NCBI GenBank assembly: GCA_020438905.1
Contig: JAGQTQ010000021.1
Coordinates: 7,080 to 64,739 of the forward strand
Direction: 5' to 3'
Source: Mycobacterium sp.
Lineage (GTDB): Bacteria > Actinomycetota > Actinomycetes > Mycobacteriales > Mycobacteriaceae
DNA length: 57,660 nucleotides
Below, one piece after another: positions 47,675 through 51,069 of the stretch. Every line of letters starts with the position of its first letter. The stretch's first letter is position 1. The position numbers and the translations under genes are program-made. A model generated the notes under the pieces. The model saw only the letters and a program-made list of their open reading frames with translations, did no database searches and was not told the DNA's origin.

Positions 47675-48675
47675 GGCCGCCGTCCGTCGCGCTGGCGCCG
47701 GTAGTCCTCGATGGTCATGGTCTGCAGCCGGGAGAACTGGCCGGTGGGGTTGTCGACGATGCCGATCGCCTTGACGTAGGGCTCGATGACGTGGACCTTC
47801 TGCAGCGGTGTGACGATGAGCAGCTGCAGGCCGAGGGTGGCGAACAGTTCCAGCGCGTAGCGGGTCGAGACGTCCGAGCCCCGTCCGAAGGCCTCGTCGA
47901 TGACGGCGAAGCGGAAGTCACGGGACTGCGCGACTCCCCACTCCAGACCGAACTGGTAGGCCAGCGAGGCCGCCAGGATCGTGTAGGCCAGCTTCTCCTT
48001 CTGGCCGCCGGACTTGCCGTCGGAGTCGCTGTAGTGCTCCCACTCGGTGTCGGTCTCGACGTCGCGCTCGGAGGCGGAGAACATGAACCAGTTGCGCACG
48101 TCGGTGACCCGCCGGGTCCAGTTCTTGTCCGATTCGGCGTAACCGTCTCGACCGCGGAAGCGCTCGATGATCCGCTTGACGTCGAGGAAACGCTGCTCGG
48201 AGTACTGGTCGCCGTCGAGGGCGAGGCTGTCGTTGGTGAGGTTGCGCAGATCCGAGCGGAACTGCGCCACATCGGTGTTGGAGGTGGGTTCCTTCTCCAG
48301 CCGGATGTAGCGGCCCGGGTTGTAGGGCACCGCGCCGAGCGCCTCGTTGATCCGGTCGACGCGCTCGTCGATCGCGGCGGCCTGGCGCAGCAGCCAGTTG
48401 TTGAACCCCGCCAGTTCCTGAATGGCGTTCTTGTTGAGCTGCTCTTTGAACTCGGCCTCGAAACGCGGCAGGTCGTCGGTGGCGACCCGGTCCCTAAAGG
48501 CCCGGAACTCCTGGCGCGCTTCGATATTGGCGTCCATATCCGCGCGCGCCTCGGGCCAGCGGGTCAGGAAGGCGCCCATCTGGACGACCATGCTCTGCCC
48601 GAGGCCGGTCAGCTTGTGGGAGAGCCGTTCGATGCGGCCGTGTAACTCCTCGGCGAGGGCCTTCTCGGCCTGGTC
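47671..48675 (-). pseudogene. jetC: JetC C-terminal part downstream of an in-frame amber codon
   Basis: This stretch is in the same reading frame as the N-terminal JetC part (48676-51069) and continues it directly after TAG: DQAEKALAEELHGRIERL, then SMVVQMGAFLTRW. It carries the ABC signature (DGKSGGQKEK) and Walker B (FAVIDEAFGRGSD) needed to complete the SMC ATPase, about residues 1020 and 1057 of the full frame. Nothing else in it is damaged. An ATG at 48591 could start a separate 306-residue polypeptide but has only a weak ribosome site. Unless the TAG is suppressed or a base-call error, JetC is not made whole. Confidence 0.85.
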
Positions 48676-51069
48676 CTACTGTGCGGCCAGCGTCGGACGC
48701 TTCGCACCCAGCCGCGCGTCCAGAGCCGGGTAGGCCGCGCGCGCGGTGGCCAACTCGACTTCCCCCTGGGCGGCAAGGAACTCGTCGTCGGCGCTCTTGT
48801 CCCGCTCGGCGCGCTGGGCGGCCGCGGCGGTGGTGGCCAGCCGCCCCGTGAGGCGCTCGATCTCGGCGGTCACGGCGGCGGCACGTTCGGTGTTGCGAAC
48901 CAGCGCGCGGGTGATCTCCTCCAGCCGGGACGAGCCGGCCGCCAACCGCTCGCGTTCGGCGTCGTATTCGTCCGCCCGGGTCGACGCCTCCTCGACGTCG
49001 AGGTCGTCCCAGGACGGGAAGGATTCCAGCCGGGCCAGCGATTCGGCCCTGGCCTGCAGCGCATCGCGCTGGGCGCCGAGGTCGGCCAGTTCGGCGGCCA
49101 CGACGGCGCGGCGGTCCTCCAGTTCGGCGAGCTCGGTGCGCAGGGCGACAATCTTGCGCTCGTTGGCCCAGCCGAGCACCCACCGGCGCGGATCGTCGAC
49201 ACGGTGCCGGTCATCCTTCTCGTGGCGGTCGCCGGAGCGGACCTGGCCCTCCCGGGTGACCGCTCTGCGCTGGCCGCGGAACTCCTCCAGACTCGCGGCG
49301 CACCGGTAGTCGGCCCGTTTGGTGAGCTCATCGGCCAGGTAATCCCGGAACGGGCCGTCCTTGACGTCGATGCAGTCGGCGAGCAGCAGCGCGCCGGGTT
49401 CGGCGGGCTGCAGCCGAACCCGTTGCCGGGCAACCCTTTCGTAGACCAGGCGGGCTCCCACCTGCCGCCCGCCGCGCCCGGCGACGGTGAGCCGACGACC
49501 GTTCACCCAGCCCGCGACGGCGTCGTAATGCTGTTGGGGCACCAGCAGGGACAGGGCGAACCCGCGTAGCACCCGTTCGGCCGCGCCGCGCCACTGGGAA
49601 TGCTCGTCGTGCACGTCGAGCAGTTCCCCGGCATAGGGCAGGTCTTCGGGTGTCAGACCCAGCGCCGCGCACAGTTCGGCGCGGATCTCGACCTGTTCGG
49701 CGGGCAGGTTGCTGGTCCGCTGTTCCAGGCTGGCCAGTTCCGCAGCGATCGCCTCACTCGCGCGGCGCAGCTCCCCGTCCCGCCCGATCGCCTCGTGGTA
49801 CTCCCCGTCCATAACCCGACGCCGCTCGGCCAGTCGCGGCCGCTCAGCGGCCACCACTGCCGACAGGGCCGCGAAATCCCCCGGCCCGGCAACCGGTTTC
49901 AGACCGGCAGCAGCCACCGCGGCATCGAAAAGGGTGCGGGACTGACGGCGTTTCCCGGCTTGGCCCCGGGCCTCGCGGGCCAGCCGCTCCAATTCCCCGA
50001 TCCGGTCGCCCCCGGCCCTGGCCCGCTCCTCGATGAGCGACTCGCGTTCATCGGCGAGCTGCTGCTGGGTCGCCTTGGCGGCGTCCTGCTCGGTGTGCAG
50101 CGCGGCGCCCTCGGCGCGCAGCGCGGCGATTTCCTCGGTCAGCAGCGCGGAGCGGCGCTCGGCGACGAAGACCCGCACCGCGCCGCGTTCCCGCTCCAAC
50201 TCACCGCGCTGCGCCAGTGCCGAGTCGTATTTCTCGGCGGCGGTCACCACCGGATCGAGCGCTTCGAGTTGCTCGCGGGCCCGCTTCACCGCGTCGTGGG
50301 CCTTGGTGAGGTCCTCGAAGTGGGTGATGATGTCGCGAACCCGTTCGGTGCAGTCGCTGGGCTCGAGCATGTGGTCGCGGACGAAATCGTTGAGGTTGCC
50401 GACCGACTTCATCGACACCGTCTGGTGGAACAGCTCGAGGGCCTGCTCGGAGCGGACGCCCAGCAGACGACGCAATGACGTTGCATACTTGGGGAATTCG
50501 TCGAAGATCTCCGCTCCGCCGGCACGCAGCCGCTTGCGCAGATCGCGAAGGTCGGTGCCGAAGTCGGCGAAATCGGTGGCGATCGACAGCGCCTTGGTGG
50601 CGGTGACGTAGAAACGGTAGGGCTGCCCCGTGCTCTCGCGTTGCTGGAACACCTGGGCCAGGGTGACGGTCTCGTTGTAGCCGTGGTTGACGAAGACCCC
50701 GAGGATCACCGAGAAGGTGCGCCGGTTCTCCCGCAGGCCCTTGGCCCGCGAACGCCCGGTGGTCTCGATCCGTTCGGACTTGTAGTGGCCTTCGACGTAG
50801 GAGCGCAGCGTGCGTTCCCGGGCGTCGGCCCCAGCGGCCTTGTTGTAGGCGGCTTTGTGGGCGGGCATCAACAAGGTGGTCAGCGCATCGACGATGGTCG
50901 ACTTGCCCGACCCGATGTCACCGGTGAGCAGGGCGGTGTCGGTTCCGGGGGTGAACCGCCACACCAGTTCGTCGAAGGTGCCCCAGTTGCGCACCTCGGC
51001 GTACTGCAGTCGGTAGCCGGCCCGCGGCGAAGCGCCGAGTTCGACGGCCGAGAACAGCCCGTCACTCAT
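48676..51069 (-). CDS. jetC: JetC (SMC/MukB-like ATPase), N-terminal part ending at a premature amber stop
   Basis: A 797-residue open frame. Walker A is GDIGSGKST at residues 50-58, in LLTGDIGSGKSTIVDALTTL. Long Glu/Arg/Ala-rich coiled coils flank a hinge-like middle (about 490-590, with LLDVHDEHSQWRGAAERVL). It ends ...RPTLAAQ at a TAG (48676-48678), after which the same frame continues for 334 codons. Full JetC would be about 1132 residues. It is the DNA-loop-extruding motor of Wadjet, called EptC in M. smegmatis, where loss of EptC underlies efficient plasmid maintenance in strain mc2 155. The start overlaps the jetB end by eight bases. Confidence 0.9.
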   Translation of the reverse strand: MSDGLFSAVELGASPRAGYRLQYAEVRNWGTFDELVWRFTPGTDTALLTGDIGSGKSTIVDALTTLLMPAHKAAYNKAAGADARERTLRSYVEGHYKSERIETTGRSRAKGLRENRRTFSVILGVFVNHGYNETVTLAQVFQQRESTGQPYRFYVTATKALSIATDFADFGTDLRDLRKRLRAGGAEIFDEFPKYATSLRRLLGVRSEQALELFHQTVSMKSVGNLNDFVRDHMLEPSDCTERVRDIITHFEDLTKAHDAVKRAREQLEALDPVVTAAEKYDSALAQRGELERERGAVRVFVAERRSALLTEEIAALRAEGAALHTEQDAAKATQQQLADERESLIEERARAGGDRIGELERLAREARGQAGKRRQSRTLFDAAVAAAGLKPVAGPGDFAALSAVVAAERPRLAERRRVMDGEYHEAIGRDGELRRASEAIAAELASLEQRTSNLPAEQVEIRAELCAALGLTPEDLPYAGELLDVHDEHSQWRGAAERVLRGFALSLLVPQQHYDAVAGWVNGRRLTVAGRGGRQVGARLVYERVARQRVRLQPAEPGALLLADCIDVKDGPFRDYLADELTKRADYRCAASLEEFRGQRRAVTREGQVRSGDRHEKDDRHRVDDPRRWVLGWANERKIVALRTELAELEDRRAVVAAELADLGAQRDALQARAESLARLESFPSWDDLDVEEASTRADEYDAERERLAAGSSRLEEITRALVRNTERAAAVTAEIERLTGRLATTAAAAQRAERDKSADDEFLAAQGEVELATARAAYPALDARLGAKRPTLAAQ

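What the first reader, a model, noticed from the sequence alone, without database searches (positions are those of the whole stretch)
48670..48684. In-frame amber codon splits the Wadjet/Ept SMC gene jetC
The frame from 51069 ends at TAG (48676-48678) and the identical frame resumes at once with unbroken coiled-coil and then the ABC signature and Walker B. A single CAG to TAG change explains it. jetA, jetB and jetD look intact. EptC (the JetC equivalent) is the component whose loss makes M. smegmatis mc2 155 hold plasmids well, so this strain may be naturally or recently permissive. Alternatives are amber suppression or two separate SMC half-proteins.
Basis: partly seen in the sequence, partly recalled or inferred. 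Interest (0 to 1): 0.8.

Follow-up and report, generated by a model that had tools for sequence, protein, structure and literature searches.

The report
Broken anti-plasmid gene in a mycobacterium
In this mycobacterial genome assembly, the main motor gene of a known plasmid-destroying defence system carries a stop signal in its middle; if real it probably switches the system off, as seems to have happened repeatedly in related bacteria.

Summary
A type I Wadjet operon (jetABCD, minus strand) has a TAG at 48676-48678 that ends the jetC frame after codon 797. The same frame continues at once with 334 conserved codons, including the ABC signature and Walker B. All 23 fetched relatives holding both halves have an uninterrupted frame. 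Both halves are under purifying selection (dN/dS 0.11 and 0.06), with no acceleration on the window branch, so the change is very young or an assembly error. No amber-suppressor tRNA was found; RF1 is present and TAG ends other genes. The truncated protein would lack half of its ATPase head, so loss of Wadjet function is most likely. The source is an 84.9%-complete assembly in 189 contigs; no reads were available, and a second window gene is frame-broken, so an artefact stays open. New context: in 42 mycobacterial genomes with this Wadjet subfamily, 9 operons have a broken jet gene (12 gene breaks, jetC no more often than its length predicts), against 0 of 39 for mfd and 0 of 35 for full-length rpoB. 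This looks like an ordinary instance of recurrent Wadjet decay, not a new mechanism. Plasmid permissiveness is plausible but untested.

The parts
51693..53117 (-). jetA (kleisin-like, DUF3375), intact
   Evidence: Pfam PF11855 E 7.6e-142; PADLOC JetA1 PDLC00457 1-478 of 480
51062..51652 (-). jetB (KITE-like, DUF4194 / MksE), intact
   Evidence: Pfam PF13835 E 2.6e-43; PADLOC JetB1
48676..51069 (-). jetC N-terminal piece, 797 aa: Walker A head lobe, N arm, hinge, part of the C arm; ends at TAG
   Evidence: Pfam AAA_29; PADLOC JetC1 PDLC00512; aligns to JetC 8as8 residues 9-710
48676..48678 (-). in-frame amber codon (TAG), codon 798 of jetC
47671..48675 (-). jetC C-terminal remnant in the same frame, 334 codons and a stop: rest of the C arm, ABC signature, Walker B
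   Evidence: Pfam SbcC_Walker_B E 2e-23; PADLOC JetC1 PDLC00512 789-1120; aligns to JetC 8dk2 787-1098
46490..47674 (-). jetD (Toprim nuclease), intact; its start overlaps the distal jetC stop codon
   Evidence: Pfam JetD_C and DUF3322; PADLOC JetD1; coordinates

Best explanation
A type I Wadjet (JetABCD) plasmid-cleaving SMC operon in which jetC has recently acquired a nonsense codon. Translation makes a 797-residue fragment with one half of the ATPase head, the hinge and an incomplete coiled coil, but without the signature and Walker B half. It cannot form a working ATPase, so DNA loop extrusion and JetD-mediated cutting of small circular DNA should be lost. Early termination about 1 kb before the overlapping jetD start may also lower JetD translation. 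Shown: the interruption, the conservation of both pieces and its absence from the relatives examined. Inferred: that the base is real, that the fragment is inactive, and that plasmids are better tolerated.
For: Contiguous profile match on either side of the stop. Open frame in 23 of 23 relatives with both pieces and in 36 of 41 assessable genomes of the subfamily in the genus sample. The stop aligns near residue 775 of E. coli GF4-3 JetC, in a weakly aligned stretch, outside the elbow-to-hinge segment 348-686 that can be replaced, and inside the core that suffices for plasmid cleavage (section 10 of PMC12647877), so the fragment lacks an essential core part. No CUA tRNA among 35 typed of 36 and RF1 present. 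Jet genes are broken in 9 of 42 operons of this subfamily, the window's included, against 0 of 39 for mfd and 0 of 35 full-length rpoB; Fisher p 0.0025 and 0.0032. Published precedent: spontaneous eptC mutation in M. smegmatis mc2 155 and a split mksB in P. putida KT2440 (passages of PMC10123090).
Against: No reads, and the assembly is incomplete. A second gene in the same window (around 8567) is broken by a one-base indel relative to G208, which fits consensus errors as well as real decay. The C piece shows no relaxed selection (dN/dS 0.061; 2 window-derived against 4 L002-derived changes), so decay, if real, has barely begun. jetA, jetB and jetD are still open. For jetC alone the comparison with mfd is marginal (p 0.055; without the window 0.12).
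Confidence: 0.62

Rival explanations
1. Assembly or consensus error, or a minority allele captured by the consensus, in an incomplete and probably metagenome-derived genome; jetC is intact in the living population.
For: 189 contigs, 84.9% complete. Both jetC pieces are constrained. A second frame break lies in the same 57.7 kb.
Against: The second break is not in a long homopolymer (longest run within 12 bases is 4). mfd of the same assembly is open. By my reading only two of 38 coding-like ORFs are cleanly interrupted. A substitution error that makes a stop in this very gene is a priori rare (recalled, not computed).
Confidence: 0.3
2. The split is functional: either the amber codon is read through at some rate, or the C piece is translated from an internal start and the two chains pair along the coiled coil.
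For: Both pieces remain under purifying selection. ATG codons lie at codons 29, 33 and 47 of the C piece. P. putida KT2440 mksB is described as seeming split (passage of PMC10123090).
Against: No suppressor tRNA among 35 typed of 36 tRNA matches. RF1 present; TAG terminates 6 of 26 window ORFs with a readable stop. None of the other 41 genomes of the subfamily shares the split. No obvious ribosome-binding site is seen by eye before the ATGs. Constraint is equally explained by recency.
Confidence: 0.06
3. An old pseudogene, long inactive.
For: A stop codon in a long gene.
Against: At most about 7-13% of the window branch could have been unconstrained, as an upper 95% bound from 2 to 6 window-derived changes in the C piece against about 91 expected if neutral.
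Confidence: 0.02

Closest known systems
Type I Wadjet / JetABCD (MksBEFG, EptABCD)
   Same: Four genes in the order jetA, jetB, jetC, jetD with the family domains and best PADLOC models JetA1, JetB1, JetC1, JetD1; JetC aligns with solved JetC 8as8 and 8dk2
   Different: jetC interrupted by TAG after codon 797
EptC of M. smegmatis mc2 155 (spontaneous mutation)
   Same: Mutation of the SMC subunit of a mycobacterial Wadjet; better plasmid transformation is reported (passages of PMC10123090, PMC12287153 and PMC10586767)
   Different: The mc2 155 lesion was not examined here (Panas 2014 is not held), and it may lie in another Wadjet subfamily
Split mksB of Pseudomonas putida KT2440
   Same: SMC gene of the system described as seeming split (passage of PMC10123090)
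   Different: Another phylum; its cause and position were not examined
Broken jet operons found here in G221, G045, G229, G076, G137, G203, G123, G262
   Same: Same mycobacterial Wadjet subfamily, broken jet genes
   Different: Breaks at other positions and often in other jet genes or in several; mostly frame changes

Membership tests
Type I Wadjet | jetA (DUF3375), jetB (DUF4194), jetC (SMC-like), jetD (Toprim nuclease) in one operon | tested here: met
Type I Wadjet | JetC with Walker A and with signature plus Walker B in one uninterrupted polypeptide | tested here: not met
   Both motif regions are present but separated by TAG at 48676-48678
Type I Wadjet | Restricts small circular plasmids | not testable with these tools
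   needs a living culture
Recent pseudogene | Frame interruption absent from orthologues | tested here: met
   23 of 23 relatives with both pieces are uninterrupted
Recent pseudogene | Relaxed selection after the interruption | tested here: inconclusive
   dN/dS 0.114 (N piece) and 0.061 (C piece), no excess on the window branch; expected if the change is very young or false
Amber suppression or recoding | tRNA with CUA anticodon | tested here: not met
   None among 35 typed of 36 tRNA matches; one at a contig edge could not be typed; genome 84.9% complete
Amber suppression or recoding | TAG no longer a terminator, or RF1 lost | tested here: not met
   RF1 match 497.3 bits, over the cut-off; TAG ends 6 of 26 window ORFs with a readable stop
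Genuine two-gene JetC | Split shared by relatives | tested here: not met
   None of 23 fetched relatives and none of the other 41 genomes of the subfamily is interrupted at this place
Genuine two-gene JetC | Initiation site for the second piece | tested here: inconclusive
   ATGs at codons 29, 33 and 47 of the C piece; initiation strength not scored
Sequencing or assembly artefact | Not supported by reads | not testable with these tools
   no reads held

The most novel reading that the evidence does not exclude
This would make Wadjet in mycobacteria a tunable system, in line with its frequent breakage across the subfamily.
Probability: 0.04. Interest if true: 0.6.

Novelty: new member of a known kind. 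Interest (0 to 1): 0.25.

Why it matters
If real, it adds one more natural Wadjet loss and suggests where plasmid-permissive mycobacteria might be found. The more useful point is the base rate: about one in five mycobacterial operons of this subfamily carries a broken jet gene while two long conserved control genes carry none. Anti-plasmid immunity therefore looks repeatedly lost, which bears on why some mycobacteria take up plasmids easily and others do not.

Tried and rejected
Suppressor tRNA: none among 35 typed of 36. Recoding: RF1 present. A second Wadjet copy that could cover for this one: none in the own genome at the thresholds used, but the assembly is only 84.9% complete. A jetC hot spot: rejected, jetC has 5 of 12 gene breaks against 51.5% expected by length, p 0.57. 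Stops reported inside jetD of G350, G291, G318 and G355 were dropped as matches running past the gene end. The shorter jetD match of G076 (ends at residue 361-362) was not counted as a break. G293 jetC lies on two contigs and was not counted for jetC. rpoB of G263, G293, G302 and the window's genome are pieces at contig ends and were left out of the full-length count. In one search, besides the two clean interruptions, 12 of the 38 ORFs showed a stop or shifted bases; I set these aside as lying before the likely start, antisense, partly aligned or shifted only at an edge, and followed up only one of them: a 461-aa G208 ORF that is a shorter relative of a 671-aa open frame in the window, not a break. 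Panas 2014 could not be read. Searches for Wadjet with pseudogene/jetC and for Wadjet with mycobacterium and frameshift showed, in their listings, no paper on recurrent Wadjet breakage in mycobacteria; that is no proof that none exists. The other mycobacterial JetC groups (45-46% and 28-33% identical) were not surveyed fairly for breaks, because the E-value cut would lose broken copies.

Full report
What was checked. The minus-strand frame starting at 51069 ends at TAG 48676-48678 after 797 codons, and the same frame stays open to its own stop at 47671. The operon is jetA 53117-51693, jetB 51652-51062, jetC 51069-47671 with the stop inside, jetD 47674-46490. Pfam finds DUF3375, DUF4194/MksE, AAA_29 in the first jetC piece, SbcC_Walker_B in the second, and JetD_C plus DUF3322. 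The best PADLOC models are JetA1, JetB1, JetC1 (both pieces, consecutive on one profile) and JetD1. This is a type I Wadjet by gene content.

Where it comes from. The window lies in an assembly of 3.69 Mb in 189 contigs, 84.9% complete. The nearest named relative by JetC is a Mycolicibacterium metagenome-assembled genome, HK-STAS-ACTI-10 (L002; 93% in the N piece, and 97% in the C piece). The G208 contig has the same length, 397,104 bases, as the L002 contig. That the window's own assembly is also metagenomic is an inference. No strain need exist.

Is the stop unique? Of 24 related loci fetched, 23 hold both pieces and all 23 read through in one frame; L025 is cut by its contig end. In a genus sample of 396 genomes, 42 (the window's included) carry this jetC subfamily, counted by me from the rows with 71% identity or more; all 42 recur in the C-piece search. 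None of the other 41 is interrupted at the same place (open frames; broken ones). The codon that relatives carry there is deliberately not reported.

How old is it? Against L002 the N piece has dN/dS 0.114 and the C piece 0.061. With 11 outgroup sequences, amino-acid differences assigned to the window branch are 10 (N) and 2 (C), against 17 and 4 on the L002 branch, with 25 and 4 ambiguous. Had the C piece been free of constraint over the whole branch, about 91 changes would be expected; the upper 95% bound allows at most 7% (2 changes) to 13% (6 changes, the ambiguous ones included) of the branch. The stop is therefore recent, or false, or the C piece is still used.

Suppression and recoding. 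ARAGORN typed 35 of the 36 tRNA matches in the own genome and none has a CUA anticodon; the remaining one lies at a contig edge. RF1 is present. Of 27 window ORFs that I chose from the 37 kept, 20 end in TGA, 6 in TAG, and one runs off the window.

Mechanism. Alignment of the open JetC of L002 to solved E. coli GF4-3 JetC places codon 798 near residue 775, in a stretch of low alignment confidence. In that protein the elbow-to-hinge segment 348-686 can be replaced by a short linker with plasmid cleavage retained, provided the ring stays closed by a crosslink (section 10 of PMC12647877). The stop lies outside that part, in the head-proximal C arm, and removes the head half with signature and Walker B. 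An ATPase head needs both halves (general knowledge of SMC proteins), so the truncated product should be inactive. The jetD start overlaps the distal jetC stop, so premature termination may also reduce JetD; this is inference.

Artefact or real? By my reading of 38 coding-like ORFs of the syntenic G208 stretch, the window cleanly interrupts two: jetC, and an 830-aa reductase-rhodanese-TusA-DsrE fusion, broken near 8567 by a one-base indel. Twelve further ORFs with a stop or shifted bases were set aside as start-site, antisense, partial or edge effects; one of these was followed up. Of 42 genomes searched with the fusion, G208 and G123 have it open over 830 residues, the window has it in two pieces, two hold only distant partial matches and 37 have no match at the cut used. 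Two breaks in 57.7 kb fit consensus errors as well as real decay. mfd in the same assembly is open; its rpoB match is a contig-end piece without a stop. I put about 0.3 on an artefact.

Base rate in relatives. The four genes were examined in the 42 genomes and the suspicious operons fetched and re-examined. Breaks: jetA in G076, G137, G203; jetB in G262; jetC in the window, G221, G045, G229, G076; jetD in G221, G137, G123. That is 12 gene breaks in 9 of 42 operons; G293 jetC is split over contigs and not assessed, so jetC is 5 of 41. G137, G203 and G123 share a 2-kb stretch of identical DNA with the named loci L021, L016 and L012, which show the same breaks; these are M. yunnanensis DSM 44838, Mycobacterium sp. 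ST-F2 and M. xanthum Y57 (titles). The jetC break positions differ between genomes, so the events look independent; G221, G076 and G137 have two broken jet genes each. Controls: mfd is open over its profile in 39 of 39 genomes with a match, 42 searched. rpoB shows no stop in the 39 matched of 42 searched and is full length on one contig in 35; the other four are pieces at contig ends. Fisher tests give p 0.0025 and 0.0032 for operons, and 0.055 for jetC alone against mfd; without the window the mfd comparisons are 0.0055 and 0.12. The operon is longer than either control gene, single-frameshift cases (G045, G229) could be sequencing errors, and both controls are conserved genes, so this is suggestive rather than exact. 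jetC is not hit more than its length predicts (5 of 12, p 0.57).

Known context. Passages of PMC10123090 state that M. smegmatis mc2 155 carries a spontaneous mutation in EptC and that P. putida KT2440 mksB seems split. Passages of PMC12287153 report a C. cellulovorans mutant with much better plasmid transfer whose three spontaneous deletions include jetABCD, and a large effect of deleting jetABCD alone. A passage of PMC12502714 suggests eptC as a possible reason for poor transformation of M. kansasii. A passage of PMC10482375 gives Wadjet in 42% of actinobacterial and 7% of other genomes. So spontaneous loss of Wadjet is a known kind of event.

Verdict. Interest is modest.

Noticed in passing
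7266-9754: An 830-aa CoA-disulfide-reductase-like/rhodanese/TusA/DsrE fusion that is open in G208 and G123 is broken in the window near 8567 by a one-base indel.
   Followed up: partly
45750-46413: A Phd/YefM-type antitoxin and a PIN-domain gene lie beside jetD on the opposite strand.
   Followed up: no
44651-45748: A predicted protein joining an ERCC4 nuclease domain with an Lsr2 DNA-binding domain.
   Followed up: no
11057-13072: A 671-aa open frame of which G208 has a shorter, 461-aa version with an internal stretch missing.
   Followed up: partly
G221, G045, G229, G076, G137, G203, G123, G262 (L066-L073): Eight further mycobacterial Wadjet operons carry broken jet genes, three of them in two genes.
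   Followed up: yes
genus survey: JetC relatives in the 89 matched of 396 genomes fall into three identity groups: 71% and more (42 genomes), 45-46% (3) and 28-33% only (44); six genomes carry both the first and the last group.
   Followed up: no
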